A stretch of 64,000 nucleotides of DNA from the NCBI GenBank assembly GCA_964036195.1, contig OZ038455.1:124001-188000 (forward strand), written 5' to 3'. Shown here in pieces: positions 14,755 to 33,156 of the stretch. The notes below the pieces were generated by a model. The model made no database searches, was not told the DNA's origin, and saw only the letters and a program-made list of their open reading frames with translations. The stretch is from Sphaerolaimus hirsutus. Its lineage: Eukaryota > Nematoda > Chromadorea > Monhysterida > Sphaerolaimidae. Numbering within the stretch: position 1 is the first letter of the stretch; the number at the start of each line of letters is the position of its first letter. Made by a program: the position numbers and the translations under genes.

Positions 14755-15610
14755 TATCTGAAATACGTTTTTGTAGGTAGAAATATGGCTAACTAATCAT
14801 GCGTAAAAACGTAACGACAATTTTTGTGCAGACACTCCGACGACTCGAGAACGACCATGTGCGACCGAATGACGACCCGCGGTGCACAGGGAAGTCACAG
14901 TGAACGTGCGGTTCGCTGTGCACTGCAAATCCGCCAACGAAGCCGCAGCCCCAGGACGGTACGCCCGAATGGACACTACTGCGGCCATGAATTTATTAAT
15001 TGTTTCTTTTCCGTTAATTATTTAATTACTTCCCGTGTGACGCTAATTTTTAATTTTTATTTTAGTGATTCATTAATTAAGCTAATTAGGTTACCCGCAT
15101 TTTGAGTTAATTAAGTGATTACTCTCGTTTTTCTTTTTGCATTTTCCCAATATGTACTGTCGAACGTCATAATTATTAGGTTTTTATCAAGTTTACATTT
15201 TAGTTAAAAGGGTGCAGTGTCTGGGAATGATTTAGAAAGGTTTTTATGTTTCTAGTTAAGCTAACAGGTGTTAACTCTGTTAAATGCTTAGACGCCCCGA
15301 TAGATAACATTCAGAAAATTCCCCGACCAAGTGCATTCTTATTTAGGACTAGGTAATGGGTGGAAAAGTGGCAAACGGCAATTATTGTCGGCATGCGACT
15401 GCAAGACACATGCAGAGCACAGTTTACAGTGAAGAGCACAGCAGTGCCAATTAATTATTCCCATCACCCAGGGTGATTGGTGAACTCATAAGTGCTAGTG
15501 TCTTGTGGCGTGTGTTCAGGCCCGAAGTTTCCAACCCTTACCCGGCAATGCAATAACCTTGAACAACCCCCGCAAATGAGCGTTCTTTCTGTGGCCTTGG
15601 TCGGGCGCGC

Positions 15611-15618
15611 TATAAAAA
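15611..15618 (+). promoter_or_regulatory. TATA box of 5' LTR
   Basis: TATAAAAA after a GC-rich stretch (GGGCGCGC). It is 450 bp upstream of the LTR polyadenylation signal, so transcription should start about 25-30 bp downstream, near 15640. Inferred from position and consensus only. Confidence 0.6.
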
Positions 15619-16059
15619 TATTTTCCACCTAAAGGGGCGCAGGTTGATAACACGTGTCACACCACCTGCTCTCGACTGTACCGTAACCTCTGAATAGAAA
15701 CCCAGTTCTCGACACTCACCTACGAGATAAATTGTATTTTAATTACGTCATTGGTAATTACAGTTACTGTACGCTTGGTTTGACCCATATTTTACCCGCT
15801 TTATTTAATTAGATAATTTTCCCGCATTTAATTAATTTACTTGTGCCTTGTACGTTATGTTTACAGTTTTCCAGTGATCATTGATTACGCCTTATTAATT
15901 CGCTTATTATGGTTAATTGTTTTGTCTTTGATTTAGTATTCAGTTCGATTATGGTAGATTTTGGTGATTATAAAACGCGCTGATTTTACATTTTTTCACC
16001 CACTAGAGGCTATACGACTCACTTGAGCTATTGTGAAATTGACTCTGACTACATCGCTA

Positions 16060-16065
16060 AATAAA
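16060..16065 (+). terminator. LTR polyadenylation signal (5' copy)
   Basis: AATAAA followed by a GT-containing stretch. The same signal in the 3' LTR (32627-32632) would end the element's RNA. Confidence 0.55.
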
Positions 16066-16211
16066 GTTCCCGTGAAACCAACTTGGTCCCCCTGAAGCAT
16101 ACTAACTGCTTGAATTTTAATTTTAATTTTATTAATTTCGGCTTTTCATTAATTACGGCTTTTTAACAATTAATCGAAGTAAACCGCCGGCAGCAGTTAC
16201 GAAAGGGATTG

Positions 16212-16217
16212 GTAAGT
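16212..16217 (+). promoter_or_regulatory. Candidate 5' splice donor in U5
   Basis: ATTG|GTAAGT is close to the metazoan donor consensus. It lies after the presumed end of R, so only the 5' leader would carry it. It could feed spliced mRNAs for the envelope-like segment (candidate acceptor CTCAG at 19868-19872, just before ATG 19884), for the orphan ORF (candidate acceptor TTTTTTAG ending 25982) and for the helicase ORF. Not tested by transcript data. Confidence 0.4.
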
Positions 16218-16455
16218 TGCCGTGTCCATCCTCAGGAACTGTCAGGACCCCAAGGGGTACTGGCGCCGTTCCTGATTTGCGTGTAAACATCCCCGTACCA
16301 TAAAACCAATCATTTATTTAATTAAGCACGCAAGTGGAAGCGCAAAGGGACCGGAATTTGCAATTCTCTGCCGCGGCAAAATTCGACGAGTGGCGTATTT
16401 TTGTGGTAAAAACGGAAAATAGTAAAATTAGTAAAAACGTAAAATATCTGACAAC

Positions 16456-16473
16456 TGGTAGCGTAGCGAGTGG
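16456..16473 (+). other. Probable primer-binding site
   Basis: TGGTAGCGTAGCGAG starts two bases after the 5' LTR end, the usual place and TGG start for a site complementary to a tRNA 3' end. I cannot name the tRNA; the first seven bases would fit an initiator-Met-type acceptor but the rest does not match clearly. Confidence 0.5.
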
Positions 16474-16568
16474 TTTCCTAAGCAAGCCATAAAGTTTTCT
16501 GTCTGGGGCGCCTGATCAACGCCTCTACAAAAAACGGCTTCACGGATAACGAGTCACCCCAAAGGGAA

Positions 16569-19500
16569 TTGAGATCGAGGGGGCCAGCAAGCTTACAAGG
16601 GGACACCATAGAACAAGTTTGGCACGCTGCATTGGAGAAGCAAAAACAAGCACGAAGGCGCGCGCGACAACAGAAGGCTGGGCAAGAAGTGGACGCACAA
16701 CTTGCTGCAGCTGAGAGTCAAGCAGGAGACAGTGAGTCGAACGATTCGGTTAACCCTGAAACAGAAGCGCCGGAAGCGCTAGAGGAGAGTGAAAGTCAAC
16801 GCTGGTCTGGACAGACAGCTGAGGACACCCCGGTAATTAGGTTATCAACGGTTGAAGGTGCAGGGCCTGCGCCAGACAGTTTCAGTCAGTGGAAAACGCC
16901 AGCTGTACCGACAGCGGCACGGCAGCTAACGTCCAGCGCAGAAGCTGAAGAAGCGCCTGGGACAAGCAGACAAACTGCAGGAAAGGAAGCAGGTAAGACA
17001 GGTAAGTGGTCTAAGCTTCGGAGGACATTGGGTTGGAGCGCGGGCAGCTCATCCATATCGCCTGGAGTGCGATCGGGTTCTGAAGTCGGTTCAGACGGAT
17101 ACGTTGGTGACAGCGAGCCTCTAGGGCAGCCGTCGATTCAATGTGATTATCCTATGATTGCAGCTGAGCTTGGAGCTACTGCAGATCAATTTCCCGTGAT
17201 TGAAAATACCGTAGAGGAATTATTGGAGACAGCGGCGCAGAGTGGAGACACTTCCCCGGCGCTGCAGTTAAGCCCCCCGAAGAGCACTTCGACGCCGAGA
17301 GACGTGTCAGGCAACAGCAGTCGGAATTTATCGAGCGACCAGTCGAGATCGCAGAGCGCAACTGCAAAGGCTAGACGCCAGTTAATTAAGACCGAATTTT
17401 CAAGTAACCCCCCCGTGATAATTATTAGCAGTCCCGCTAGCAGAATGACAAACAATGGCGCAAACCAGACGGCGGCCCCGGCACTGGAAGACAGATACGC
17501 GAATGTCAATAATGCTAATTTAATTTACCAAGCTACCATAATGGACCTGGACCCGGTGCAAACAACGCCAACCTGTGCACAATGGACACCTAAAAAGGCA
17601 TGTGCAGCTGCAAAGAAATGGGCAAACATGATGAGTCAGGCGAGACCGGTTGGTGCTTTCTCACAGAATGGTGAACCAGGGGATTTGCGTATGGTGGCGC
17701 TAATTAAAACTGCTATGAATTTATGGGGAAGTGACCCAGTCAATGAGGTACCTAGGGTGGAACATTACTTGAGGGAATTCGAAGCGCACCACAGCGCACA
17801 TGGCGATGATATAGTTGATCTGGCGACTGCGTACCAACAGCATAATCAAGCCCTACAAAATCAGAACGCGACGCTGGGAGGAAATTCGCCGGCCAGTGGT
17901 CAGCAGCCAATAGTTCTGACCAACGGTCAAGCAGCGCCCTTGCAATCATCCACGACCCCAGCGGCGCCCCTGTCGACAGCTGGAGCAAGCCAGGTGAGAA
18001 CTGTTACGCAGCGACGCGCTCGATCCCGCTCGCCGGCATCGTCAAGAAGCTCGTCGGCTAGGTCCGAAGTGGCAGGGCCCACGGACCCGGGACAAAATTG
18101 GCAATTAGAACAAAGCAATGCGGCGGTTATTACAGCCCTAGCACAACAATGTGGATACTTTCGCGGCAAACCAAATGAGGGTTTCAGGGAATGGAGAAGG
18201 AGCTGGGACACGGTATGTGACGCGCTGCGCATAAAATTACAGGAGCGGAAGCCGCTGGTAAAATTATTTTTGAAAGGCAGTGCCCGGGCCATTTTCAACA
18301 CGCGATATAGAGAATTGCGCGACCTGAACTATAAGGACATGATGCAAGCGCTGGAGAAGTTCTATGAAAATCCGAATGACAAACATCATGCACAGAGAGA
18401 GATTTTTGAGACGCGACAGGGCGCAGATGAGTCGGTGCTGGAATGGGCGGTACGTTTGGAAAAATTGATAAAACGCGCCTATCCAGGCATGGGTCATGAA
18501 AAACGAGGTGACACATGCATGATAAAATTCCATGGAGGACTGAGGAATGAAATTCGGCGCAATGTACCTGTCACGGCTTCTATCACATGGAAGGAAATGG
18601 TTGACAACGCACGTGCTCAGGAGAGCTTTTTGGAGGCAGAACAAAGCCAGAATAAGGGAGAAAAGTCTAAACAGGATGTAGTTGCCAGCGCGACCGACAA
18701 GGTAATGGACAGGTTGATGGCGCTGAACATGCCCGCCATGGCTGGACTGCCGTCCCAGGCCGACAAGACGCTAGAGACAATGGAACAGAAAATGACTGAG
18801 AGTGTTGCTAAATTTGACTCGGTGCACCAAGAGATAGCGAAGAAATTAGCGCAACTGGGCGCGTTGGAAGGTAAACTTTTGGGATTGAATAGGGACCCCC
18901 CTAAATTGCCCCCACGCAAGTTTGACAAAGGATGTTGGGAATGTGGCTCTGAAGAGCACATCAGATATGAGTGTCCGAAACTCACCCCTGAACAGAGGGA
19001 ACAGTATCTCCAAAGGAGCCGCGGCGGCGGAGCATCCAGAGGAAATGGACGTGGGCGCGGCGGAGGACAGCGTGGTGGCTATCAGAGAAATGACCACGCT
19101 CAAGCGATGCAGCCAGGTATGATGCCCATGCAATATGCCTACCCGCAGTGGCAACCAGCTCAGCCAATGCCTGTGCAACCGGCGCAGACGGTACAGAGGG
19201 CTGGTGATATGAACATGCAACCGCAGATGATGGCTTATCAAACGCCGCCAGCTAATTGGATGGCTATGGGACCGGATGGGCGCATGCAACAATATAACAT
19301 GCAACCGGTACAGGTGAGCAATCCCCACATAGAATCGCTGAACCCCACCCGAGTGACCAGTACGACTGGAATGACCATGCATGTGCGCGAAGATGACCGT
19401 TGCATGATGATACGTCCCGTTAATAAGTTAATCCCTGTGATGCAAGGCCTAGAAATAGAGGCAGATGAACCTGACGAACTGGTTCCAGAGTCACCCGAAG

Positions 19501-22500
19501 AACAGCAGCGCACTACGGGAATGCATGTGCTCGCGCAAGAGCGGGAATTTTGGATCAAGCCATGGGCATACATGCGAACTGAGAAAGGTTACTTGTTTCG
19601 AACTACTTGGCTGGCCTTCTTACGCAGGATCGGAATGCATGATTTGAGGGAAACGGACTGTACGCTGTGGCCTAATTGCCCTGCAGACGACCACTCGGAC
19701 ACGCTGACGGAGGTGCCCTTGGACGTGCTCATGAACATCAGTCTGGACCCGTTCCTGTACGCCACGCCGGCCGCTCTGCCGCCGCGCACGGGATCCAGCA
19801 ACCAGATAGACAGGTATATGGGCTTTTTGTCTACTGAGGAAGGGGTGCGTCCCGCGCCGCGCGCGTACTCAGAACCCCCTTACATGCCCCAGGTCGCACA
19901 GTCGCTGTTTTTTGTGTTGACAATTGGATTAATTATAATGGGATTAGCCTTACTACCGGGCGCGGGCGCGACTACCATGCCCTTGTTTCCATTGCTATGC
20001 AGTGACTTGACGGATCACTACGATTTATACACGTACCCCCCCCTGCCCAATTGCACGGCTATTGTTGACACTACGGCGTCATTAGAACGGCCACGAAAAT
20101 TGACACTGACAATCTACAAGCGAAATATGGTAGAATATCGTGCGGCAGCACACAGGTGTGTGGCCTCTATCAGAACGGCAAAGACATATCAGAACTTCTG
20201 GGGCGACGTCACGCTGGAAAAGTTTGATTCTAACCCCCGATCTGTGGGCGCCGCCGAGTGCGAAGGCATGATTAAATATCACAAGTGCAACAATGGGCCC
20301 ATGACCCCTGTGAGTGATTTGGACAACGCATGGGACACTCAATACCCCACCAATGTTAGTTACTCAGGACATGGACTGTACTGCTGCAAATGGGTGAGTG
20401 AAACGACGCCACACTGTGGGCTGTTTCGAGGGGAAGTACGAATGAGATATGGAGCCAACACCATGCAAAGCACGCTGGGTGATGTTAGTAAGTGCAATTA
20501 TGAAATGGGTGCATGCACACTAGAAGACGGCAGCCAATTAACATGGAAACCGAACCCGAAGGCGGAATGCCCTTATGAAAAATGGCGTGAAATGCATGGA
20601 CGCATTAGACAGGATATCTGGCTAGCCGATGATCATACGCTATCATTGTCTTTCAGAGCCCATGAAGAGGTTGAGTCATGCGGCATTAAATTATGGAAAT
20701 CGGACCAGGATATTGTAGTGGCGCCATTTGAAAAGGCAGTGATTCGAAGCGTCAGACAAAAACGAGCGCAAGGTCGACCCACGCTGGGAATAGTGAGCGC
20801 AGGCCAATTAGCAGCCAGCATGCAGGCGGTATACGAAACAGCAGAACAAACCATGCGTGCACAGGCCGTAGCCACCTGCAAGAACGTGCAACACTTCCAA
20901 GAATTTGTGCGACTGGCCATGAGTGAACACGCCACTACGACAGCCCGCTGGTACATGAATGATAATGAAATAATTGCCAAACCCGCGCCGGACGGATTTT
21001 TGGTTCACAAATGTTTTGCGGTAAAAACATACGAGATAATGAAAGAGAAGAAGTCCCCAGAATGTTATGAAACAGTACCTGTGCAAGTTAGTGTACACGG
21101 GCAAAATGTGACGTTGCACATGAATAGGTTGACAAACATTTTGCATTTTCAAGCGATCCCGGGCTCATGCACCAATGCGCACAATCGTGTGGTAATGTTA
21201 AATGGACAGTGGTACAAATATCTACCGGAAGTCGGCGGCCTGGAACATTTACCTATGTATAACACACACAGTTTCCCGCAGAAATGGCAACAGGAAAAAG
21301 TCAGGGATGTGCATCATCAGATTTTTGCCGCCACGACTATGTACAACTTGTCAGAATTATTGCCGACGACCACCCTGAATGACGTATGGCATGCATATTC
21401 AATCGTGCGGCAAATTACGCAGGGGGCGGAGCCGAGGGTGGAATCACACATGCAAAGGCATCGAACCTTGGCAAAATCGGTCTTAGCGCTGGGATGGTGG
21501 GATTTTGACACCTGGCGCACCTGGCTACAAGTATGGATTTATCTGATATGTGCACTGGTCACCATGCAGTATTTACTAGCCGCGCTCATGGCTGCAGCGC
21601 CGGAAACGGCCGTGACTTTGGTGAACAGGGCAAAGGAAAAAATTAAAAGGCGACCGAAGACAGAAGGAAAGTCCAATATCATTGTCGAATTGGCTGAGGA
21701 CCGCCCTAGCGAACAGGTAAAGGTAAGAACGGTAATTAACCCGTGCGTGGGAATGCCAAGTGGCATGCCCGCACTCACGGGCGCGCGTCGTTTTCCCGCT
21801 ATACAATATAGTATCAACAGAAAATGCGATCTGGAAGAAGAATCGGTGTGCATGATCACTTTCTCGACGGAAGAAAGAGACAACATCCATCAAGTAGCCA
21901 ATCGACGTGAAGAGATTGTGCATGTGTACTACAGCCCATCCATTACCATAACCATTGACGGGAGAGAATATCGGAGATGCCTACTGGACACAGGCGCCAT
22001 GCGTTCATTATGCAATAGGGACGTGCTGATGCGACACAAGGAAAAGGCTACTAAGCATGATGAAGTTTCACCTATTGGAGCCCTCAGGTGCGCTGCAGAT
22101 TCGAAACTTTTGGTACTGGGACAGATGGAAGTACCGGTAACGATGGGAAACCATACCTTCGGAATTGTGTTTCAGGCGGTGAATGGATTAGCTGGTGAAA
22201 TTTTAATTGGCGCAGACGTTTTACGGCACATGGTAGTAGACATGCCGGCAAGGGAACTACGAATCCCTACGGCCAACGCGATAATCCCCTTCGATAACCC
22301 AGACCCGGAAGTGCAGCAGCGCAGAATCTACGCTATTGTGAACGAAAAAATAGAAGTTCAGGCTAGACATGAAGCGTTAGTGACCGCAAAGTTATCTGCC
22401 CCCATGGATGAAAAGTTATTTACGGTCATGGGATTGGATACGGTAGGTGAACGCTGTGGCGTTATGGCTGCTTCAGCGGCCTATGAAACTAGTGCCCCTG

Positions 22501-23165
22501 TGTTTCAGGTGAGATGTGCAAATGTACGAAATCAGCCTGTAGTGCTACAGGTAGGACAGCGTATTGCGGTGGTCGAACCAGTGGATTGCGTGCTGAAAGT
22601 GAAACCTGGAGACCCCCCCGTTGAATGGGTGAAGCAGTGTTATGACAGAGATGTGTGTCGACAAGTTCAAGCGACTGAACCTCCCCCCAAAGTAGCCGAA
22701 GACAAATTAGGACCCCCACTGCAAGTTGCATGCCCAGATGGACACGTGATGGAATTCACCGTGCCAGAAACTTTGACGGACGAGCGCAGAGAGGAACTGA
22801 AAAAGGTAATTTTGCAGTACAAGGAAGCTTTTGCCCGACATAAGTATGACATCGGCTACAGCGAATTAGTGGACTACCGGTTGCAATTAGTGGACAAAAA
22901 ACCAATTGCATGCAGAATGTACCGGTTGAGTCTGGATGATCAGCAATACTTAGAAAATCATTTGAGATGCCTCATCGAGCACGACATCGTGGAACCCAGT
23001 ACGAGCCCGTATTGTGCCCCCACGCTGGTGGTATCCAAACCGGATGGATCAAAGCGGATGGTAATTGATTACAGACGCCTGAACGCTGTTTTGCACGCTC
23101 CCCAATTCCCATTACCCCGCTTAGATGAAACAGTCGAATCTTTATGTAGCTGCAAGTATTTTTAG
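16569..23165 (+). CDS. Gag / envelope-like / protease / RT N-terminal polyprotein
   Basis: One uninterrupted 2198-codon frame. Residues 1-500 are low-complexity and polar. Residues 507-700 look like a Ty3-type Gag capsid region. A CCHC zinc knuckle (C-x2-C-x4-H-x4-C) is at 789-802, followed by an RG-rich tail (816-845) and a Met/Gln/Pro-rich stretch. Residues about 1106-1680 resemble a membrane glycoprotein. An aspartic protease follows with DTGA at 1807-1810 and ILIGADVL near 1880. Reverse transcriptase fingers start near 2095. The frame ends at TAG 23163-23165 inside reverse transcriptase. The frame is open from 16482 but has no ATG before 17154 (residue 196). The start shown is a TTG, so Gag may begin at a non-AUG codon, after splicing, or its AUG may be mutated in this copy. 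Placing an envelope-like part between nucleocapsid and protease is unlike known Ty3 elements, where env follows integrase. Confidence 0.85.
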   Translation: MRSRGPASLQGDTIEQVWHAALEKQKQARRRARQQKAGQEVDAQLAAAESQAGDSESNDSVNPETEAPEALEESESQRWSGQTAEDTPVIRLSTVEGAGPAPDSFSQWKTPAVPTAARQLTSSAEAEEAPGTSRQTAGKEAGKTGKWSKLRRTLGWSAGSSSISPGVRSGSEVGSDGYVGDSEPLGQPSIQCDYPMIAAELGATADQFPVIENTVEELLETAAQSGDTSPALQLSPPKSTSTPRDVSGNSSRNLSSDQSRSQSATAKARRQLIKTEFSSNPPVIIISSPASRMTNNGANQTAAPALEDRYANVNNANLIYQATIMDLDPVQTTPTCAQWTPKKACAAAKKWANMMSQARPVGAFSQNGEPGDLRMVALIKTAMNLWGSDPVNEVPRVEHYLREFEAHHSAHGDDIVDLATAYQQHNQALQNQNATLGGNSPASGQQPIVLTNGQAAPLQSSTTPAAPLSTAGASQVRTVTQRRARSRSPASSRSSSARSEVAGPTDPGQNWQLEQSNAAVITALAQQCGYFRGKPNEGFREWRRSWDTVCDALRIKLQERKPLVKLFLKGSARAIFNTRYRELRDLNYKDMMQALEKFYENPNDKHHAQREIFETRQGADESVLEWAVRLEKLIKRAYPGMGHEKRGDTCMIKFHGGLRNEIRRNVPVTASITWKEMVDNARAQESFLEAEQSQNKGEKSKQDVVASATDKVMDRLMALNMPAMAGLPSQADKTLETMEQKMTESVAKFDSVHQEIAKKLAQLGALEGKLLGLNRDPPKLPPRKFDKGCWECGSEEHIRYECPKLTPEQREQYLQRSRGGGASRGNGRGRGGGQRGGYQRNDHAQAMQPGMMPMQYAYPQWQPAQPMPVQPAQTVQRAGDMNMQPQMMAYQTPPANWMAMGPDGRMQQYNMQPVQVSNPHIESLNPTRVTSTTGMTMHVREDDRCMMIRPVNKLIPVMQGLEIEADEPDELVPESPEEQQRTTGMHVLAQEREFWIKPWAYMRTEKGYLFRTTWLAFLRRIGMHDLRETDCTLWPNCPADDHSDTLTEVPLDVLMNISLDPFLYATPAALPPRTGSSNQIDRYMGFLSTEEGVRPAPRAYSEPPYMPQVAQSLFFVLTIGLIIMGLALLPGAGATTMPLFPLLCSDLTDHYDLYTYPPLPNCTAIVDTTASLERPRKLTLTIYKRNMVEYRAAAHRCVASIRTAKTYQNFWGDVTLEKFDSNPRSVGAAECEGMIKYHKCNNGPMTPVSDLDNAWDTQYPTNVSYSGHGLYCCKWVSETTPHCGLFRGEVRMRYGANTMQSTLGDVSKCNYEMGACTLEDGSQLTWKPNPKAECPYEKWREMHGRIRQDIWLADDHTLSLSFRAHEEVESCGIKLWKSDQDIVVAPFEKAVIRSVRQKRAQGRPTLGIVSAGQLAASMQAVYETAEQTMRAQAVATCKNVQHFQEFVRLAMSEHATTTARWYMNDNEIIAKPAPDGFLVHKCFAVKTYEIMKEKKSPECYETVPVQVSVHGQNVTLHMNRLTNILHFQAIPGSCTNAHNRVVMLNGQWYKYLPEVGGLEHLPMYNTHSFPQKWQQEKVRDVHHQIFAATTMYNLSELLPTTTLNDVWHAYSIVRQITQGAEPRVESHMQRHRTLAKSVLALGWWDFDTWRTWLQVWIYLICALVTMQYLLAALMAAAPETAVTLVNRAKEKIKRRPKTEGKSNIIVELAEDRPSEQVKVRTVINPCVGMPSGMPALTGARRFPAIQYSINRKCDLEEESVCMITFSTEERDNIHQVANRREEIVHVYYSPSITITIDGREYRRCLLDTGAMRSLCNRDVLMRHKEKATKHDEVSPIGALRCAADSKLLVLGQMEVPVTMGNHTFGIVFQAVNGLAGEILIGADVLRHMVVDMPARELRIPTANAIIPFDNPDPEVQQRRIYAIVNEKIEVQARHEALVTAKLSAPMDEKLFTVMGLDTVGERCGVMAASAAYETSAPVFQVRCANVRNQPVVLQVGQRIAVVEPVDCVLKVKPGDPPVEWVKQCYDRDVCRQVQATEPPPKVAEDKLGPPLQVACPDGHVMEFTVPETLTDERREELKKVILQYKEAFARHKYDIGYSELVDYRLQLVDKKPIACRMYRLSLDDQQYLENHLRCLIEHDIVEPSTSPYCAPTLVVSKPDGSKRMVIDYRRLNAVLHAPQFPLPRLDETVESLCSCKYF
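19884..21650 (+). other. Envelope-like glycoprotein segment inside the polyprotein
   Basis: From an in-frame ATG at 19884, about twenty hydrophobic residues end in a small-residue stretch (ALLPGAGA), as in a signal peptide. Then come about 500 residues rich in Cys, with sequons NCT, NVS, NVT and NLS, a CC pair, and a furin-like RQKR at polyprotein residues 1396-1399. The part ends with a Trp-rich juxtamembrane stretch, a hydrophobic segment (about 1650-1678) and a basic tail (KEKIKRRPK). This is the layout of a type I viral fusion glycoprotein. A conserved-looking Asp-Gly...Trp...Cys spacing upstream of RQKR, and a Cys-bearing helical stretch after it, remind me of class III glycoproteins (chuvirus/rhabdovirus/herpesvirus gB type). 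That class assignment is only a suggestion. There is no stop before protease. Confidence 0.65.
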
Positions 23166-25869
23166 CAGTGCCGACATAAATCAAGCTTTCTATAACATTG
23201 CTTTGCATCCAGATGATCGACACATTACGTCATTTAGAAATGTTTTTGGACAATTCCAACTGAAACGTTTACCAATGGGATTAAAATGCTCACCCAGTTT
23301 AGCGCAACGCTGTTTTGAATTAGCTATGGCCGGATTAATACATCGAAATGTGTTATTATACATCGACGACTTGCTGATTTATAGTGCAACCTGGGAAACA
23401 CATTTATACGACATAGGGCAGGTATTGGAATGATTGATTAGAAATAATTTCAAAATTAGTCCAAAAAAGTGTTTTTTCGCACGCGTTACAGCTGTACGTT
23501 TTCTAGGATTTATGATTGGCCGTGACGGCGTGTGCGTTCCAGATGACAAACGCCACATAATACAGGACTGGCCGGTACCCACTACCGTAAAGGAAGTTAA
23601 GGGTTTTCTGGGAGCTATAGGTTTTTTTAGACGCATGATTCACAGGTGCGCAGAGCTAGCTGTACCCTTGTCAAATCTCACGCGTACGGGACCAAGAGAA
23701 AATTACAATAGCGACACCCCAGTGGATTTGACAGCAAAACCCAAGGCACTGGAAGCTTTTCATAAGCTCAAGGAAGCATTGTTAGGAAGCCCCTGTTTGC
23801 AATTTCCCGACCCTAAACGCATGTTTATAATTATCACGGACGCCTCTAAAATCGCCGTTGCAGGCGTACTGGCACAACGAGCAGAGGACGAGAAAATACT
23901 ACATGCATGTGCCTTTTACAGCCGGAAGTTAGGTGCCACCCAAAGCAAATGGCCAGCGATTTCCCTGGAAGCGTGTGCAATCTACGAAAGCATACGTAAT
24001 TGGCATTGTTATCTGGCGGGACGGCCCTTTGAAGTCTGGACTGACGCCAAGAGTATTTCGTGGGTAAAGAATCCCAATTTAGAGACTACCCCACACGCCA
24101 TGCTGCACAAGTTCGCTCTAGCAATTACGCCGTACCAAATCACGTTCAAGCATTTGCGGGGAAAAAGCAACGAATTAGCAGATGCATTATCCAGAAGACA
24201 AGACGCCCCAGTGGTATTCGACGAGAAAAAGGACCTGGATGAGGCTTTTGAGCAGTTCGCACAAGTTACGTGCCGTGAAATCGCTATCCCACACGATAAG
24301 CAGGTTACGGTAGCTGCGGCGAGCAGGGCAGCGTACCAGCCAATCAGCGTAAACGAGGAGGCGGAGTTTCTGCGACCAATCAGCGACCGGACGCGCGGGC
24401 GAAAAGAGGCGGAGTCACCCGGGCTGCGAGAGCGGCAGCGGAATGCGGAAGCGCCTGGAACCGGAACAATGGCTGGTTCAGGAGCCGGAAATGAAGTTGT
24501 TCCGGGTTTGACGAGTGTAAACAAGCGCAGTGCGATCATGGCGCTACCCCCCATGACTCCGGTTGACAAATTAAAGCGATTACAAGCAGAAGAACTATAC
24601 ATAGCCACAACTATAGAAGTGTGTCGCGTGGATAATTTTTACAGCGCAGCGCCGTATTTTATTGATCAATACGGTTTATTACGTCGCCAAGCGGGAACGT
24701 CCCAGGTACCAGGTGTACAACTATACGACCCAGTGTGTATTCCGTCAGAATTAGTTCCATTCGTGTTAGAATTAGCTCATAATCACCCCACGGCGGGCCA
24801 TTTAGGAATAATAAAAACATTTGAAAGATTGCAGGAATTCGCGTGGTTTCCAGGAATGCGGCCAGAAAGTGCGCGCTGGGTAGCTACTTGCCCTTCGTGC
24901 AACGCCAAGAAAGGTCTCAGAGCGGCAATGCGAACTCAAATGGTGTGCCGCCAGGTAGCCAAAAGGCCAGGTGATGTGATAGCAGTAGACGCAATAGGAC
25001 CTTTACTAACCACGAAACGCAGAAACCGACATGTGTTAGTATTTGTTGATCAGTGCACACGTTTTGGAATTGCCGTGCCCGTTCCCGACATAAAACAAGA
25101 CACCGTATCATTTGCATTTTTGTTGCACATTTTGCCCATATTTAGTGTGCCGGCCATTATACTCAGTGATAACGCCCCTAGCTTTACCGAGGGCACTTTT
25201 GCCAAGCTTTTACAATATTTGAACGCGACCCAACATACATCATTTGCGTATACCCCCAAGAGCAACGGAATGGTGGAACGTAGGAATGGTGTTCTGATGG
25301 AAATAGTATCTCACTATGTAAATCGTACACATGACGATTGGGACATACATTTAGGCGCCGCTGTACATGCGTACAATACGTCAAAACACCCTTCCTTGCA
25401 AACCACCCCCTATGCGTTGCTATTTGGCAAGCCTGCTGCGTCTATGTGGGAGCGTATGATCGAGCCTCCCCCCGACACTGAGGCATTGCCCTCATTGCCG
25501 CATAAGCGCGCTCTTATAAATGAATTAGGCGCGCGTCTGACCACAGCACGCGAAGCAGCACACACCGCTTTAGCAAAGGCGCAGCAAAAGGAGCAATTTT
25601 ACGCCAATCGCCGGGCGCGCCGATTGAATGTGCAACGCGGGCAAGCGGTACGCGTATACACACCGCGTATTACTCAGTTGACAGGCCCCAGTAAGAAATT
25701 CGCGCCTCGCTTTATCGGCCCGTATGAGTGCATTGATTATGCCCACCCATTAGTGACTTTATTCAACAATATTAATAAGAAAATTTATGTAGTCCATGCA
25801 GATCGTTGTAAGGCAACCAGTGAATATTTAATTCCCCCTTCTTACAGTGAATTATACGGCGACGACTAA
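23125..25869 (+). pseudogene. pol: RT / RNase H / integrase part of pol, broken in this copy
   Basis: This frame continues reverse transcriptase one base out of register from the polyprotein. The change falls in a five-T run at 23159-23163. RT palm with YIDD is at 23359-23370. An in-frame TGA at 23431-23433 then interrupts the RT, a change compatible with a CpG transition. The thumb, an RNase H domain (ITDAS, Asp at 23839) and integrase follow. Integrase has an HHCC zinc module (HPTAGH; CPSC near 24890), Asp at 24988 and 25168 and Glu at 25276 (D-x59-D-x35-E), and a GPY module near 25717. A 100-residue polar linker (24230-24540) separates RNase H from integrase. The rest is intact to the stop at 25867. 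I describe the breaks only; whether the first is a programmed +1 shift or a lesion is discussed under findings. Confidence 0.9.
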
Positions 25870-26080
25870 AATTGATTAATTAGCTGATTAATTAGCCGTT
25901 ACGATCATCGCCGTCGCGTCAAACAACACGAAACCAGGTACAACAGGTATGAAGTGTGTGTGAAAGTGTGTGTGTTTTTTAGGAAGCTCGTGCACCCCTT
26001 TTGCCCACGGGCAACTGGACCGCACGAGTTCTTGTTACTTTCCCCGTTCATAAAACTTTTATCACATTATTATAATTATA

Positions 26081-27046
26081 ATGGCTTCGGCCTCTCGCAA
26101 ACGCCCATTTGAAGGTGCAGACGCCCCGCCCATTAAATCCAAGGAGACAAATACACATGGTGCCTGCGGCGGCGGAACCATTCCCCCGCGACAACTTTAC
26201 CACGCGCAGCAGATGCAAAATGGACCGGAAATCTACCCCAGCAGAGGGAAATTCGAAGGTTGGGTAGATAGGGTGTATATTGACTCGGGCGCCGACGGGC
26301 ATGTTGAGTATCAGTGCCATGTGAGAATTTCTGAGCAGACGATGGCGATACTCAGCGAAAACGAGCAGTGGGTGAATGCGGATGAAGCCTATCCGTATTT
26401 TTATTATTCTAATAAGCGGGCCAAGGCGGCTAGGGACAAACGAACCTCCCAGCTGGTGGATTTGTGCGCGAAAATTCAGAAACAACACCCCTCGATGTTT
26501 CTGCCCCTGGTGCGCCACGGGATGCGTTTCTCGGCGACCGCAATCGCACAAAAAATAGAAAATCCCAGGTACTGGGAGTTTACCGGCGTCGTGATATGGG
26601 GTAATCAGACAAAGTGCCCCTTAAACGTTGCCGCCCCCGTGGTCGTGAGTATGCAGGGCACGCGGCGCGTCACTCAAGCAGCACGTACATTGACGCGCGG
26701 CGACACTTCCGGCTACCAGCCCTACACGAGCGACTGGAAAACGGCGCGGCTGCGAGCGGCCTTCACGCCGTCGAATTACAAAAATCTGGAACCGCTGGGC
26801 GCGGCGGAGCGAGGCGATGTCGGGCCGGAAAAGCTGGTCATTTTGCACAGAGAATATGTGAGTGACAGCAGAGTGGAAAATTTGAGTGCTGGGCAGTTGG
26901 GGCTGGCCCACGTCGAATATCACGACCTGAACGATTTGGACGTGTTCGGCGACGAATTCTACGGCCATGCGTACGGGCTGCAGGTCGCCACGGCCGAGGA
27001 CATCAGCACAACCACAGGGAAGAGTAAAACGCTGACAGCTCGCTGA
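26081..27046 (+). CDS. Orphan ORF of the retrotransposon (321 aa)
   Basis: I do not recognise this protein. It starts at an ATG in a strong context (A at -3, G at +4), 211 bp after pol, and ends at TGA 27044. The N-terminus has a nuclear-signal-like RKRPF. The rest is soluble, with a mixed-charge region (SNKRAKAARDKR near residue 108) and a Trp/Gly-containing core (YWEFTGVVIWGN near 165-180). I see no membrane segment, zinc knuckle or protease motif. The second half is clearly more GC-rich than the surrounding host DNA, like the helicase ORF. A pyrimidine-rich acceptor-like TTTTTTAG at 25975-25982 could give a spliced mRNA. Position after integrase is where other Ty3 elements carry env or accessory genes. 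A nucleic-acid-binding accessory role is possible but unsupported. Confidence 0.75.
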   Translation: MASASRKRPFEGADAPPIKSKETNTHGACGGGTIPPRQLYHAQQMQNGPEIYPSRGKFEGWVDRVYIDSGADGHVEYQCHVRISEQTMAILSENEQWVNADEAYPYFYYSNKRAKAARDKRTSQLVDLCAKIQKQHPSMFLPLVRHGMRFSATAIAQKIENPRYWEFTGVVIWGNQTKCPLNVAAPVVVSMQGTRRVTQAARTLTRGDTSGYQPYTSDWKTARLRAAFTPSNYKNLEPLGAAERGDVGPEKLVILHREYVSDSRVENLSAGQLGLAHVEYHDLNDLDVFGDEFYGHAYGLQVATAEDISTTTGKSKTLTAR

Positions 27047-27759
27047 CAGCAAGCCTGACAACCAATTGTTTATAGTTGTCAGCGAGCTGTCAGCGGTTGG
27101 CCGCCTGCTGTCAGCGAGCTGTCAGCGGTTGGCGGCGAGCTGCAGCAGTTTTGAAAAATGAACAGTCTCGCTGTCAGCGAGCTGTCAGCTTACTGAGTAT
27201 CTTCATGATGTGCAATTTTGTGAGTAATGTACAATTCATTTTTTGACCCAAAATCGATCTGAGTAAACAAACAGACAACTCAATGTGATGTTCAAACATG
27301 CAGCAAAACATCAAGTCACTATTCCTCATGTAAAAAAGTACATAAAGTCACCTCATGAGCATTGCAGTTAGAAGTCCACACCTCTTGCACTGAATGATGC
27401 TAACTATGTAATGTTTGAATTGTTTACTGTATCTGCCACGTTCTATCTTATCCCAAATCCTATATTGTATTCATTTTTCTGTTATATCCTATTTATCGAT
27501 GCATGTGCTGAAATTTTATTGCATTTTCATTTTCTTTTGGGTCAAATGAAACATCATGTTAAACATTTTTGTCAGCAGGCTGTCAGCGAGCTACAAAATA
27601 GTTCAGCTGAGTTGTCAGCGAGCTGTCAGCAAGCTGAAAATTTTTGTCAGCGAGCTGCCCAGTTTTCTACTGGTTGGCAAGCGAGCTGTCAGCGAGCTGT
27701 CAGCGTTTTACTTTTCCCTGTGAACGGGCATCCAGCCAGACACAGAAAATCGCGACAAC
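27047..27759 (+). repeat. Spacer with GTCAGCGAGCTGTCAGCG repeats
   Basis: Copies of the word GTCAGCGAGCTGTCAGC cluster at about 27034-27190 and 27570-27710, on both sides of an AT-rich middle. The words are palindromic in part (GCGAGCTG/CAGCTCGC). The same vocabulary appears far away at 43190-43530. The first copy overlaps the 3' end of the orphan ORF. A 134-codon frame at 27411-27815 runs through the repeats and overlaps the helicase start, and I do not regard it as a gene. Confidence 0.7.
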
Positions 27760-30700
27760 ATGGACGCGTTTCTCAGGTACAAATTGGGTATTTTAGCAGC
27801 GGCCCACTGCTATAACGAGTCATTCTTGCGGTTTCGGGCGAAACGCGCAACGGATGTGTGCGCGCATGTGTTCTGGGAACACACGCCGCAGGGCACTGCA
27901 TGTGACATTATGGTGCGCCGCCCGGACCCAGAAGAATTACAAGCGGACACGTTTGAAGGACCAGAAGAGCAGCGCGTGCGTCTGCTGGAGCAGGTAAATA
28001 CGCAGACACAGCTGTTGAACCAGGCGACGCCCATGTCGGTGTTGAGCTTGGTGCTGGCCAGACCGGACGAAGACAAACCAGCGGCGGGCAGCCCCAATCT
28101 ATCAGTCAGAATTACCAGCGTGGAATCAGAGCCAACCACTACAATGCTGCGTGCGAAATTGGACATGGCGGCGTCGCAATCAGCACTGCCTCGAACCCTG
28201 GAGAGTGGAAGATACATGGTGCGCGGCTCAAACGACTCGCCCAATTATGACCGAACCATGCGGTCGCTGCAGGCCGCCCTGAACAAAGCACCGGTCGGCT
28301 GGGTACCAAAAGTGATTCAGGGGTCAAAAGTACTCACCCTGGAGGCACAAATCCAATTAGCTGTGATATTGAATTTGCGTCTGCTGGATGACGAAACTGA
28401 CTGGGCGCTAATTAGCCGCGAGGCTAATGAGCTGTACGAATCACTGTTCAGGGGAAAAAACAAACAGATGATTCAGGCCAAATTAGGTGAGTTTCTGCCA
28501 CAACAAGGACAGGTAGAAGTTTTGGGAGCTGTTATCACAGCCGTGCGAATGCGCAAACCTCTTTTGATTATGTGTGACTCGCCTTTCGGGTCTGGGAAGA
28601 CGACCACACAAAATCAACTGGCGTATGTGTGTTCACGCAGCTATAATTATTATAACTCGAGACCCAGGGTGCGCGCGGGCTCCGATTTGCCATCGGACAA
28701 GCAGCCGAACGCCAAATACCATTCGACGCTCATCACGTGCACGGTCAACTCGGCGGCCGACGAAGGCGCGCGCAGGGCCCTGACCAACCTGAATAAATTA
28801 GGGCAGCAGGATATTTTTGGGGCTTTGGAAGTTTTGCTGCGGGAGCGCGCGAAATGGACCGCTATGGCTGATACGCCATTTTCCGAAATGCAAAAACTGG
28901 AGGGTTTTGAAGAATTTTTGAAACTAAGAGCGGCATTTCCGGTGCGCGTTTTGAGTCCCATGTGGGAAACTGACCCCACCTACAGTACCACCCTCGCGAC
29001 CAAATTGCCAACCCTGCACACCCTAGCACAGCGAACCGGCCACAACATCGTCCGCCTCAGCCCCGAATGGACGGCAGCGCTGGAAAAGTACGACGGCGCC
29101 AAGAAGGACTACGAGCTGGTGGACGAAATTATCAATAACTGCACGGACGACGCAGTTATACGCGCGCAGCTGACCGAACAGGTGCCATTCCTCACCGCCG
29201 AAGATGGAGACGAGCAGCCATTCGATGACTTCGAGGCAGGCGTGGCGGGCGCCCGGGCTGGTGAGGCTAGTTTAGCTGACCAGGGATTTTGGGGTAAGGT
29301 GCTGCGTAGGGCGCTGTCTAAATATGTCAGGGCTACGGTCAGGTTGCACCGGGTGTTCTTGGAAGTGGTGCAGCCCGGTCAAATCCATGTCACTTTAGAC
29401 TCCGCCCACGACGCCCGTATAAAAAGTGTGACTGCGTGTGCGGTGATTATTGACGAAGCGTCTTTGGCGTCTGACGCTGCAGTAATTAGCGTGGTTCAGG
29501 CGGCTCAGCTCCCAGTGAACGGCATGCTGCTTCTATTTGGAGACAGTAAACAATTGACGCGTATGATTCGCGTGCAAGACTGGGTGGAGCCTGTCCTGAA
29601 ACCCGACCCCACCCTCATTGATAGGCTCACTCAATATCAACTATGTCCCGTGGTTCACTTGGAAACGGTGTTCCGCGGGCATCGCCAGCTCATTCAGGCC
29701 AACTCAGTGGCGGCGTACAACGGACTGCTACGCGCCTACAACGACACCGCCGCGCACGGCGCCACCATGTTGCCCGCACCTGGCGACTTCGAGGATGGCG
29801 TCATGCTGTCATCAACGTTGGTGCACCAGGGCTGCGAATCAAAAGAGGGCATGTCCATCATCAACAAGAAGGAGCTGCGCATCATCCTGCACCTGTACGA
29901 CTACCTCGTGGCCACGGTGAAAGAAGATCCCACCCTGCCCTGGGCAGATCTTACCGATCCCGCTAGTTTGCTAATTGTGTGTTTTTATGCGGCGCAGGCG
30001 CGCGCCCTAATCAGTCGACTAGTAGCCCATACAGAACACGATGCGGCTTACTGGGCCACCCGCGTGATCACTGCCGACAAAGCACAGGCCCGTGAAGCGG
30101 AAGTGGTCATCATTTCCTGCGTGCGCGGCAGCCCGCCTACCGACTCCGCCCAGCTGGAGGCCGACCCCAAGAAGGCGTATGGTAGAGTTGGATTTGTAGC
30201 GGAATTGCCCCGGGGAAACGTAGCCACCTCCCGCGCCAAATGTGTGCGCATTGTGGTGGCCAACGCCGAGACCATGTTGTGGTCAACCTTTTTCCACCGG
30301 TTTCTGACGGTCGAGCACAAAGCCGACCGGATTTACTCTTACGAGTCAGGCCAAATTTGGGGAAACGTGTTGGGATTTTGGCCTCCGGAATGGCGCCCGC
30401 GGGCCGACTTGAAAGAACTAGTCGGACCGGACAGATACCCGGCCCTCGAAGAAGAACTGCAGGCGGAATGTTTGTCTGACATTGAAACCGCCACCGCGGG
30501 CTCTGACTCCTCCGCAGACGCGCGGGAGGAGGGTGTGCCGGTGTTGGAGGAAGTGGTGCCCGTTGTCGAACCAGTTTACCGCCCTAATGAAGAATATTCC
30601 CCCATTAGCAACGACATGGCGGCCATGGCACTGCAGAACGTAGCCGAGCCCCCCTCGCCGCCGCCCGAGCACCACGACGCGGTCGAGGCCATTCCACTGC

Positions 30701-30765
30701 CACCGGAGGAGGCTCCAGCGCAACAGGTAGAACACCACATGGAAAATGGTAATTGTGAAAATTGA
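27760..30765 (+). CDS. UPF1-like superfamily 1 helicase encoded by the retrotransposon (1001 aa)
   Basis: All core SF1 helicase motifs are present in order: Walker A FGSGKTT (residues 276-282), motif Ia TCTVNSAADEGARR (about 325-340), Walker B VIIDEAS (DEAS 565-568), motif III FGDSKQL (593-599), motif IV with an FRGH arginine, motif V TADKAQAREAEVVIISCVR (771-789), and motif VI NVATSRAK (820-827). The spacing and the VATSRAK and REAEVVIISCVR signatures match the UPF1/DNA2/NAM7 (SF1B) branch, which unwinds RNA or DNA 5' to 3' using ATP. Walker A to B spans about 288 residues, longer than in UPF1, so there is an insertion between them. No N-terminal Cys/His domain is seen. The C-terminal 80 residues are acidic and Pro-rich. 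The ATG context (ACATGG) is good. The frame is intact, unlike pol, and lies fully inside the LTRs. I know of no other LTR element with such a gene, but cannot search. Confidence 0.9.
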   Translation: MDAFLRYKLGILAAAHCYNESFLRFRAKRATDVCAHVFWEHTPQGTACDIMVRRPDPEELQADTFEGPEEQRVRLLEQVNTQTQLLNQATPMSVLSLVLARPDEDKPAAGSPNLSVRITSVESEPTTTMLRAKLDMAASQSALPRTLESGRYMVRGSNDSPNYDRTMRSLQAALNKAPVGWVPKVIQGSKVLTLEAQIQLAVILNLRLLDDETDWALISREANELYESLFRGKNKQMIQAKLGEFLPQQGQVEVLGAVITAVRMRKPLLIMCDSPFGSGKTTTQNQLAYVCSRSYNYYNSRPRVRAGSDLPSDKQPNAKYHSTLITCTVNSAADEGARRALTNLNKLGQQDIFGALEVLLRERAKWTAMADTPFSEMQKLEGFEEFLKLRAAFPVRVLSPMWETDPTYSTTLATKLPTLHTLAQRTGHNIVRLSPEWTAALEKYDGAKKDYELVDEIINNCTDDAVIRAQLTEQVPFLTAEDGDEQPFDDFEAGVAGARAGEASLADQGFWGKVLRRALSKYVRATVRLHRVFLEVVQPGQIHVTLDSAHDARIKSVTACAVIIDEASLASDAAVISVVQAAQLPVNGMLLLFGDSKQLTRMIRVQDWVEPVLKPDPTLIDRLTQYQLCPVVHLETVFRGHRQLIQANSVAAYNGLLRAYNDTAAHGATMLPAPGDFEDGVMLSSTLVHQGCESKEGMSIINKKELRIILHLYDYLVATVKEDPTLPWADLTDPASLLIVCFYAAQARALISRLVAHTEHDAAYWATRVITADKAQAREAEVVIISCVRGSPPTDSAQLEADPKKAYGRVGFVAELPRGNVATSRAKCVRIVVANAETMLWSTFFHRFLTVEHKADRIYSYESGQIWGNVLGFWPPEWRPRADLKELVGPDRYPALEEELQAECLSDIETATAGSDSSADAREEGVPVLEEVVPVVEPVYRPNEEYSPISNDMAAMALQNVAEPPSPPPEHHDAVEAIPLPPEEAPAQQVEHHMENGNCEN

Positions 30766-31338: not shown

Positions 31339-33020
31339 TGTAGGTAGAAATATGGCTAACTAATCATGCGTAAAAACGTAACGACAATTTTTGTGCAGAC
31401 ACTCCGACGACTCGAGAACGACCATGTGCGACCGAATGACGACCCGCGGTGCACAGGGAAGTCACAGTGAACGTGCGGTTCGCTGTGCACTGCAAATCCG
31501 CCAACGAAGCCGCAGCCCCAGGACGGTACGCCCAAATGGACACTACTGCGGCCATGAATTTATTAATTGTTTCTTTTCCGTTAATTATTTAATTACTTCC
31601 CGTGTGACGCTAATTTTTAATTTTTATTTTAGTGATTCATTAATTAAGCTAATTAGGTTACCCGCATTTTGAGTTAATTAAGTGATTACTCTCGTTTTTC
31701 TTTTTGCATTTTCCCAATATGTACTGTCGAACGTCATAATTATTAGGTTTTTATCAAGTTTACATTTTAGTTAAAAGGGTGCAGTGTCTGGGAATGATTT
31801 AGAAAGGTTTTTATGTTTCTAGTTAAGCTAACAGGTGTTAACTCTGTTAAATGCTTAGACGCCCCGATAGATAACATTCAGAAAATTCCCCGACCAAGTG
31901 CATTCTTATTTAGGACTAGGTAATGGGTGGAAAAGTGGCAAACGGCAATTATTGTCGGCATGCGACTGCAAGACACATGCAGAGCACAGTTTACAGTGAA
32001 GAGCACAGCAGTGCCAATTAATTATTCCCATCACCCAGGGTGATTGGTGAACTCATAAGTGCTAGTGTCTTGTGGCGTGTGTTCAGGCCCGAAGTTTCCA
32101 ACCCTTACCCAGCAATGCAATAACCTTGAACAACCCCCGCAAATGAGCGTTCTTTCTGTGGCCTTGGTCGGGCGCGCTATAAAAATATTTTCCACCTAAA
32201 GGGGCGCAGGTTGATAACACGTGTCACACCACCTGCTCTCGACTGTACCGTAACCTCTGAATAGAAACCCAGTTCTCGACACTCACCTACGAGATAAATT
32301 GTATTTTAATTACGTCATTGGTAATTACAGTTACTGTACGCTTGGTTTGACCCATATTTTACCCGCTTTATTTAATTAGATAATTTTCCCGCATTTAATT
32401 AATTTACTTGTGCCTTGTACGTTATGTTTACAGTTTTCCAGTGATCATTGATTACGCCTTATTAATTCGCTTATTATGGTTAATTGTTTTGTCTTTGATT
32501 TAGTATTCAGTTCGATTATGGTAGATTTTGGTGATTATAAAACGCGCTGATTTTACATTTTTTCACCCACTAGAGGCTATACGACTCACTTGAGCTATTG
32601 TGAAATTGACTCTGACTACATCGCTAAATAAAGTTCCCGTGAAACCAACTTGGTCCCCCTGAAGCATACTAACTGCTTGAATTTTAATTTGAATTTTATT
32701 AATTTCGGCTTTTCATTAATTACGGCTTTTTAACAATTAATCGAAGTAAACCGCCGGCAGCAGTTACGAAAGGGATTGGTAAGTTGCCGTGTCCGTCCTC
32801 AGGAACTGTCAGGACCCCAAGGGGTACTGGCGCCGTTCCTGATTTGCGTGTAAACATCCCCGTACCATAAAACCAATTATTTATTTAATTAAGCACGCAA
32901 GTGGAAGCGCAAAGGGACCGGAATTTGCAATTCTCTGCCGCGGCAAAATTCGACGAGTGGCGTATTTTTGTGGTAAAAACGGAAAATAGTAAAATTAGTA
33001 AAAACGTAAAATATCTGACA
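31339..33020 (+). repeat. 3' LTR
   Basis: 1682 bp, same ends and length as the 5' LTR. Differences are at 31534, 32111, 32691, 32795 and 32878. TATA box at 32178 and AATAAA at 32627 correspond to the 5' copy. Confidence 0.96.
32627..32632 (+). terminator. Polyadenylation signal in 3' LTR
   Basis: AATAAA in the R region of the 3' LTR. RNA started in the 5' LTR would be cleaved shortly after it. Confidence 0.5.
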
Positions 33021-33156
33021 TTTTCTGTACTCGCTTACTTTCAAAAAGTACACAAGTGAGTACCGGTATTTTGTGGGGAGCAAGCGTAAACATATTTACG
33101 CAATACTCGAGTATACGTATTGATGGAGTAAACATTAATACACTTTAGCAACTATT
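33021..33156. mobile_element. Right part of the hAT-like host element
   Basis: CTGTACTCGCTTACTTTC, CAAGTGAGTACC and CGAGTATACGTATTG words match the right halves of the AACGTAAA family (compare 49930-50060). It continues the element cut at 14771 by the retrotransposon. Confidence 0.5.

What the first reader, a model, noticed from the sequence alone, without database searches (positions are those of the whole stretch)
27760..30765. UPF1-like SF1 helicase carried by an LTR retrotransposon
Seen: an intact 1001-codon ORF strictly between two 99.7% identical LTRs, with Walker A, Ia, DEAS Walker B, GDSKQL, and motifs V and VI of the UPF1/DNA2/NAM7 type. Known: Ty3/gypsy elements normally carry no helicase; UPF1-type helicases act in RNA surveillance, and related ones (MOV10, ZNFX1) act against transposons. 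Inferred: a captured host or viral gene that helps replicate or package an unusually long RNA, or interferes with host RNA decay or small-RNA defence. It stays open while pol in the same copy is broken, so it is not obviously decayed.
Basis: partly seen in the sequence, partly recalled or inferred. Interest (0 to 1): 0.93.

Follow-up and report, generated by a model that had tools for sequence, protein, structure and literature searches.

The report
Retrovirus-like nematode element carrying an RNA helicase
A large virus-like jumping element, present in roughly two hundred copies in a worm genome, carries its own RNA-unwinding enzyme that natural selection has kept working across old and young copies, which points to a real job in the element's life cycle rather than an accident.

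Summary
Window 14772-33020 is a young Ty3/gypsy-type LTR element (LTRs 99.7% identical, 4-bp target duplication) in a 348-Mb genome with a nematode-type telomere. It is standard equipment: 190 helicase, 187 env and 226 RT sites were counted in the genome. dN/dS is 0.076 over 22 copies and 0.07-0.11 between copies as distant as dS 0.66. Ten candidate helicase-less copies gave one large deletion and no clean-junction form. It is not a one-off.

The element is odder than reported. A Monjiviricetes/chuvirus-type fusion glycoprotein sits between gag and protease. The polyprotein breaks inside RT at a 'TTT TAG C' site shared by 4 of 4 copies, with strong constraint on both sides (probable programmed +1 frameshift). 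A second Ty3-like family also has env before protease but shows no helicase, so the helicase was gained here or lost there.

Best guess at function: a separately expressed Sen1/UPF1-type helicase that protects the long genomic RNA from decay or silencing. The mechanism is inferred, not shown.

The parts
14772..16453 (+). 5' LTR (TGTAGG...CTGACA), 1682 bp; flanked by TTTT at 14768-14771
   Evidence: 99.70% identical to 3' LTR; TTTT on both sides as 4-bp target duplication; another copy (C13) has TATA on both sides
16456..16473 (+). primer-binding-site-like TGG..., 2 nt after the LTR; tRNA not identified
   Evidence: sequence reading; the same bases follow the 5' LTR in 3 other copies
16482..23165 (+). 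open frame: gag (Retrotrans_gag, CCHC) - env - aspartic protease (weak match) - first part of RT (by eye), ending in TAG
   Evidence: Pfam; frame limits; pN/pS 0.04-0.16 in all parts; the RVT_1 match in the next frame starts only at profile position 67
19959..21740 (+). env: Monjiviricetes/chuvirus-type fusion glycoprotein with signal/TM at the start, RQKR furin-like site and C-terminal TM, placed between gag and protease
   Evidence: PF24664 31.3 bits, E 7.2e-8; tblastn to the env of a BEL/Pao family of the same genome 27% identity, E 4.4e-9; pN/pS 0.060; site and TMs read by eye
23157..23166 (+). TAT TTT TAG C: candidate programmed +1 frameshift site inside RT
   Evidence: identical in 4 of 4 copies; constraint on both sides; mechanism inferred
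23434..25869 (+). RNase H and integrase (H2C2, rve) with the end of RT, after an in-frame stop in RT of this copy
   Evidence: another copy's frame L011:4642-7389 carries RVT_1, RNase H and integrase
25976..25982 (+). TTTTTTAG-type candidate 3' splice or trans-splice site about 100 nt before the helicase ATG
   Evidence: TTTTTAG|G kept in 7 of 7 other copies read; use not shown
26081..27012 (+). helicase gene, codons 1-311 (N-terminal part, no known domain)
   Evidence: runs on without a break in L002 and most other copies; pN/pS 0.043 for codons 1-323 in 7 other copies
27013..27722 (+). 710-bp MITE-like insert (CACAGGG...CCCTGTG inverted ends, AAC duplicated) that splits the helicase gene in this copy
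31339..33020 (+). 3' LTR; TTTT follows at 33021-33024

Best explanation
Shown: the ORF is the 3' three quarters of a conserved accessory gene of an env-bearing Ty3/gypsy-type element family of a nematode-like host. It encodes a 1323-aa protein with an SF1 helicase core of the Sen1/UPF1 type behind about 570 aa of unrecognised sequence, and it has been kept by purifying selection through element evolution. Inferred: it is made from its own spliced or trans-spliced mRNA, apart from Gag-Env-Pol, and acts in the host cell on the element's very long genomic RNA. That RNA has a stop in RT followed by about 7.5 kb before the 3' LTR, the classic form of a nonsense-mediated-decay target. The helicase would travel along it 5' to 3' and clear host decay or silencing factors (UPF1/SMG-2, Argonaute complexes), so that enough full-length RNA survives for export, packaging and reverse transcription.
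For: Helicase: AAA_12 89 bits; best solved relatives 8ftm, '5'-3' RNA helicase-like protein' (Sen1 of Chaetomium, recalled; E 2.2e-6), then UPF1 (E 0.009). Selection: dN/dS 0.076, 22 copies, 231 pairs; core 861-1185 pN/pS 0.025, the lowest part; old copies against a young one 0.069-0.114. Integral to the family: 190 helicase, 187 env and 226 RT sites; 83 of 100 listed RT sites have a helicase downstream, and 8 of 10 examined among the other 17 as well. Separate gene: own ATG after the INT stop and a splice-acceptor-like TTTTTAG kept in 7 of 7 other copies. Long apparent 3' UTR: 7464 nt without the insert. Precedent for a separate accessory protein serving genomic RNA in a nematode LTR element: Cer1 CERV (PMC10309623, passages).
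Against: No direct evidence for the RNA target, for expression, or for NMD or silencing as the opponent. It has no CxxC and only three isolated His/Cys pairs, so no UPF1-like CH domain with which to engage the NMD machinery as UPF1 does. Other long retroelements do without a helicase (recalled), and family B here, with a frame of 6806 codons, shows none either. Motif V has QAR where the two solved relatives have QGR, so even the enzymatic activity is unproven. AAA_11 stays below its cut-off.
Confidence: 0.4

Rival explanations
1. Replicative or packaging helicase: it unwinds the long structured genomic RNA, or displaces strands during reverse transcription, as large RNA viruses use their helicases.
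For: Element of about 17.5 kb without the insert (14772-33020 less 710 bp); strong constraint on the ATPase core.
Against: It lies outside the Gag-Env-Pol frame, so it would need another way into the particle; family B in the same genome, with a longer frame, shows no helicase in the parts read.
Confidence: 0.25
2. Silencing suppressor: it unwinds or sequesters small-RNA intermediates and blocks host RNAi or piRNA pathways, in which nematodes use related SF1 helicases (ERI-6/7, ZNFX-1, EMB-4; recalled).
For: Virus-derived SF1 helicases in insect LINEs had weak silencing-suppressor activity in plants (PMC6338049, passages). The copies are many and some are young, so the family escapes silencing to some degree.
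Against: No direct evidence; a 1323-aa protein is large for a suppressor.
Confidence: 0.22
3. Passenger or one-off capture in this copy.
For: The window copy's helicase gene is in fact split by an insert.
Against: 190 genomic sites, dN/dS 0.076, presence in copies at dS up to 0.66.
Confidence: 0.02
4. The frame change inside RT is a fixed defect of a non-autonomous family whose RT works in trans, not a programmed frameshift.
For: It needs no recoding signal; only 4 copies were checked.
Against: Both sides of the shift are under strong purifying selection in the same copies (pN/pS 0.041 before, 0.019 after), and TTT TAG C allows exact re-pairing one base on.
Confidence: 0.15

Closest known systems
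SF1-helicase-carrying insect retrotransposons (TRAS and Jockey LINEs; Copia fusions in Aedes and Leptopilina; PMC5563155, passages)
   Same: Retroelement that has gained an SF1 RNA helicase with conserved motifs
   Different: Those helicases are of the virga/tobamovirus type fused into element proteins; here Viral_helicase1 scores 14.4 bits, below its cut-off of 21, the protein is Sen1/UPF1-like, a separate 1323-codon gene, in a Ty3/gypsy-type element with env
Cer1 with CERV (C. elegans; PMC10309623, passages)
   Same: Nematode LTR element with a separate accessory protein, made there from a spliced mRNA
Anakin BEL/Pao elements with chuvirus glycoprotein (mosquitoes; PMC7642597, passages)
   Same: LTR element that captured a chuvirus-type glycoprotein
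   Different: BEL/Pao; no helicase mentioned ('helicase' 0 occurrences in the text). An Anakin-like BEL/Pao family is present in this same genome
Bdelloid LTR elements with DEDDy or GDSL ORF3 (PMC5408684, passages)
   Same: Additional enzymatic ORF besides gag and pol
   Different: Different enzymes; the authors saw no significant departure from neutrality within the genome, against strong constraint here
Sen1/senataxin and UPF1
   Same: Helicase core and motifs
   Different: Only 28-29 bits to the best solved relative; no CH domain; about 285 aa between Walker A and B; N-terminal 522 aa without any Pfam match

Membership tests
Ty3/gypsy LTR retrotransposon | Two near-identical TG...CA LTRs with short target duplication | tested here: met
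   99.70%, TTTT; second copy TATA
Ty3/gypsy LTR retrotransposon | Gag, protease, RT-RNase H-integrase in that order with H2C2 integrase | tested here: met
   (the protease match is weak, 14.1 bits, below its cut-off)
Ty3/gypsy LTR retrotransposon | RT places within Ty3/gypsy in a tree | not tested
   no reference set of retroelement RTs was available
Retrovirus-like (env-bearing) element | Envelope glycoprotein gene | tested here: met
   PF24664 31.3 bits; 27% identity, E 4.4e-9, to the env of a BEL/Pao family of the same genome
Retrovirus-like (env-bearing) element | env downstream of pol on its own | tested here: not met
   env lies between gag and protease in the same frame in the window; env also lies before protease in family B
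UPF1/Sen1-type SF1 helicase | Walker A, Walker B, GDxxQ, motif VI arginine, AAA_12 profile | tested here: met
   GSGK, DEAS and motif VI arginines invariant in 19 sequences
UPF1/Sen1-type SF1 helicase | AAA_11 profile above its cut-off | tested here: not met
   21.3 bits against 27
UPF1/Sen1-type SF1 helicase | ATP-driven 5'-3' movement on RNA | not testable with these tools
   needs purified protein
UPF1 (NMD factor) itself | Cys/His-rich zinc-binding CH domain | tested here: not met
   20 Cys in 1323 aa, no CxxC, three isolated His/Cys pairs
Virus-derived SF1H of insect LINEs | Viral_helicase1 profile above its cut-off | tested here: not met
   14.4 bits against 21

The most novel reading that the evidence does not exclude
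A lineage of retrovirus-like elements of nematodes with gag-env-pro-pol order, in which one family recodes by a +1 frameshift inside RT and encodes a Sen1/UPF1-type helicase that defends its own genomic RNA against the host's UPF1-driven decay or small-RNA silencing: a retroelement counter-weapon built on the same enzyme class as the host's RNA surveillance.
Probability: 0.3. Interest if true: 0.88.

Novelty: new variant of a known kind. Interest (0 to 1): 0.72.

Why it matters
Helicases are a hallmark of large RNA viruses but not of retroelements (recalled). A selected helicase gene in an abundant LTR family with young copies gives a natural test of what such an enzyme buys a reverse-transcribing genome: RNA survival, silencing escape or replication. 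The env-before-protease order, seen in two Ty3-like families here, also shows that an envelope gene need not sit downstream of pol. If the RNA-protection reading is right, elements and hosts fight with the same enzyme class, and the question can be asked directly in a worm.

Tried and rejected
Rejected: one-off capture; a decayed gene family; a virus-type SF1 helicase as in TRAS (Viral_helicase1 below cut-off); UPF1 orthology (no zinc cluster). A hit of the helicase alignment in viral contigs (L048) is a phage protein that I read by eye as terminase-like, sharing one short peptide: chance. Weak calicivirus 3C-like protease matches at residues 294-382 (E about 0.5) are taken as chance. Led nowhere: structure prediction of P0001 from one sequence (mean pLDDT 34), so no fold search was made; protein database searches with the whole ORF (none), its core (one metagenomic AAA_12 protein at E 8e-4) and env (none); RT-INT in viral contigs (none); the primer tRNA (no tRNA gene in the window); the host species. 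The LTR copy count did not complete.

Not done: a tree of helicases; a tree of RTs; 7 of the 17 RT sites without a listed helicase were not examined; gag, env and pol were compared in only 3 copies besides the window; LTRs of family B were not looked for.

Full report
WHAT IS THERE. The window lies in a 348-Mb assembly that is eukaryotic by its content. The start of the window's own contig is a run of GCCTAA/TTAGGC repeats (787 in the first 6 kb), the nematode telomere type (recalled); the species is not identified. At 14772-33020 stands an LTR element: LTRs of 1682 bp, 5 mismatches in 1683 aligned bases, TTTT on both sides. A second copy has LTRs with 1 mismatch in 1687 and TATA on both sides; two others, partly covered, have 99.67% and 98.83%. 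These four insertions are young.

GENE ORDER. Open frame 16482-23165 holds a gag (Retrotrans_gag 25.7 bits, above its cut-off; PNMA and CCHC just below theirs), then a Monjiviricetes_fusion glycoprotein, then an aspartic protease (14.1 bits, below cut-off), and, read by eye, the start of RT. On its own the glycoprotein piece gives 31.3 bits, E 7.2e-8, against a cut-off of 27. RT from profile position 67 on, RNase H and integrase follow in another frame. Behind the integrase stop comes the helicase gene, then the 3' LTR.

THE HELICASE ORF. In most other copies the open frame is about 1332 codons and the protein 1323 aa. In the window the N-terminal 311 codons form ORF 26081-27046. Among solved structures the core is closest to 8ftm and its kin ('5'-3' RNA helicase-like protein'; Sen1 of Chaetomium, recalled), 28-29 bits, then UPF1. 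With a profile of 19 copies the order is the same but only the first reaches E < 0.01 or so (0.0018-0.01; UPF1 0.14). NCBIfam's best is the IGHMBP2 family, 53.6 bits, far below its cut-off of 348.9. The N-terminal 522 aa match nothing in Pfam. There is no CxxC and only three isolated His/Cys pairs, hence no CH domain.

IT IS STANDARD EQUIPMENT. The protein search scored 46 of 561 candidates: all 46 cover 1-1001, 45 without a stop. The AAA_12 search scored 150 of 454: two I read by eye as host UPF1 exons, the other 148 match the profile from 4 or 5 to 194. Of these, 28 were fetched and all 28 are this helicase by blastn; the other 120 are inferred from their near-identical scores. Of the 148, 147 have no stop inside the matched stretch, and 99 lie in open frames of 1300 codons or more, 13 of 1000-1299, 36 shorter. 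Counts of 32-mers with up to 3 mismatches give 190 helicase, 226 RT and 187 env sites, with 0 for each reversed control; they need not be one to one, since each 32-mer misses diverged copies.

NO CLEAN HELICASE-LESS FORM FOUND. Of the 100 RT sites listed, 83 have a listed helicase downstream within 22 kb, 72 of them at 5.5-6.5 kb (the helicase list there held 168 places). Of the other 17, 10 were fetched: 8 hold a diverged helicase (83-93% nucleotide identity over the matched stretches), one (L049) has lost everything from before the integrase end to beyond the helicase stop, one (L058) holds no element DNA. Seven were not examined.

SELECTION. Before that I dropped six loci with gaps (L021, L029, L031, L035, L036, L040), one with partial cover (L033), three that repeat a copy already taken (L028, L037, L041), L011/L012 (pieces of the L002 copy), and L013/L014 (host). 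Four of the 26 had in-frame stops and were left out (L016, L017, L018, L039). The remaining 22 (231 pairs) give mean dS 0.126, dN 0.0096, ratio 0.076; variable sites fall 92/56/317 on codon positions 1/2/3. By part (7 copies, 21 pairs) pN/pS is 0.043 for the N-terminal part, 0.043 for the middle, 0.076 from Walker A through the insert region, 0.025 in the core and 0.063 in the tail. The 8 diverged copies against one young copy give dS 0.29-0.66 and dN/dS 0.069-0.114 over 769-846 codons, with 0-4 stops each and several frame-changing gaps; among themselves ratios are 0.10-0.36, higher where the pair is close, as expected of aging dead copies. The gene has been kept through long element evolution. 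The rest of the element is under like constraint: gag N-extension 0.124, gag linker 0.163, CA-NC 0.059, env 0.060, pro and RT start 0.041, RT after the shift 0.019, RH-INT 0.073; env read in wrong frames gives 1.97 and 2.23 (four copies, three for the first two parts).

FRAME CHANGE IN RT. All 4 copies share CAAGTATTTTTAGCAG up to the variable base after it. In frame 0 it reads TAT TTT TAG; one base on, TTT AGC continues the RT. Constraint on both sides argues for translation across it. A +1 slip of the TTT tRNA before a stop is the simplest reading; it is inferred.

RELATIVES IN THE SAME GENOME. A search with the glycoprotein profile scored 68 of 1557 candidates, at 51.6-61.2 bits, in open frames of up to 6806 codons. 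By score they are other families than the window's; two were opened. Family A (C9:16.55 Mb) is BEL/Pao (Peptidase_A17 161 bits) with the glycoprotein at the end (63 bits), like Anakin of mosquitoes (PMC7642597, passages). Family B (C1:17.07-17.10 Mb) is Ty3-like by its domains: one frame with a CCHC knuckle, thousands of residues without a Pfam domain, glycoprotein (51 bits), protease, RT, RNase H, integrase. Its RNase H and integrase are 30% and 23% identical to the window element's (E 1e-22 and 1e-19). No helicase was found in the 23.7 kb read (best helicase match E 0.011). Env stands before the protease in both, but the window env matches family A's env (27%, E 4.4e-9) and not family B's at 1e-3, so a common origin of that order is not shown. 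Either the helicase was gained in the window's family or lost in B.

HOW IT MIGHT WORK. Shown: conserved enzyme core, own gene, selection. Inferred: expression from a spliced or trans-spliced mRNA (TTTTTAG before the ATG in 7 of 7 other copies) and action on the genomic RNA. A ribosome that does not shift ends at 23165, leaving 7464 nt (insert not counted) before the 3' LTR. Retroviral genomic RNA has a long 3' UTR and several frames (PMC2925335, search listing), and Rous sarcoma virus has an RNA stability element that appears to protect against NMD (as told in PMC10309623, passages). It has been suggested that nidoviruses might use their Upf1-like helicase to interfere with NMD (PMC5031192, passages). 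Rivals are a replicative role and silencing suppression, for which insect-LINE helicases give a weak precedent (PMC6338049, passages).

NOVELTY. Six searches of the open-licence library listed no paper whose title or abstract start describes a UPF1/Sen1-type helicase in an LTR element or a nematode gag-env-pol element; the library lacks most subscription journals, and only passages of six papers were seen. The nearest are virus-type helicases in insect LINEs and Copia fusions (PMC5563155, passages). I rate it a new variant of a known kind: accessory-gene capture by an LTR element, with an unusual gene and gene order.

Noticed in passing
G000:C1:17074000-17097700 minus (L062, L063, L066): Second Ty3-like family with a single open frame of 6806 codons (gag CCHC ... 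env - protease - RT - RNase H - integrase); the roughly 3300 residues before env scanned match no Pfam family above its cut-off. One of the longest element frames I know of (recalled).
   Followed up: partly
G000:C9:16553000-16560227 (L064) and 13 further hits with the same profile range 312-462: BEL/Pao family with a chuvirus-type glycoprotein at the end of a 2900-codon frame; 7 of those 14 hits lie in frames of 2877-2900 codons. Only L064 was opened.
   Followed up: partly
window 16482-17441: Gag frame is under purifying selection (pN/pS 0.124, 3 copies) where two of three copies have no ATG in the first 321 codons (the window has one at codon 225): a non-AUG start or a spliced start exon seems needed.
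   Followed up: partly
window 23157-23166: TAT TTT TAG C inside RT, identical in 4 of 4 copies: candidate +1 programmed frameshift in an unusual place.
   Followed up: partly
window 27013-27722; similar pieces at 43205-43295 and L006:5246-5563: 710-bp MITE-like element with subterminal CTGTCAGCGAG repeats, CACAGGG ends and 3-bp AAC duplication.
   Followed up: partly
window 1-12577: 167-bp satellite with higher-order repeats, 124-137 kb from a contig end that carries telomere repeats.
   Followed up: no
window 33643-34050 and 40602-43118: Short dispersed repeats: CCCCCCCTCGAAATA arrays and GGCGCCAAGCGCC-rich units.
   Followed up: no
window 18258-23162, compared with L011, L043, L044: Divergence between copies jumps from gene to gene (window vs L011: 55 synonymous differences in CA-NC, 7 in protease-RT), which suggests recombination between copies.
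   Followed up: no
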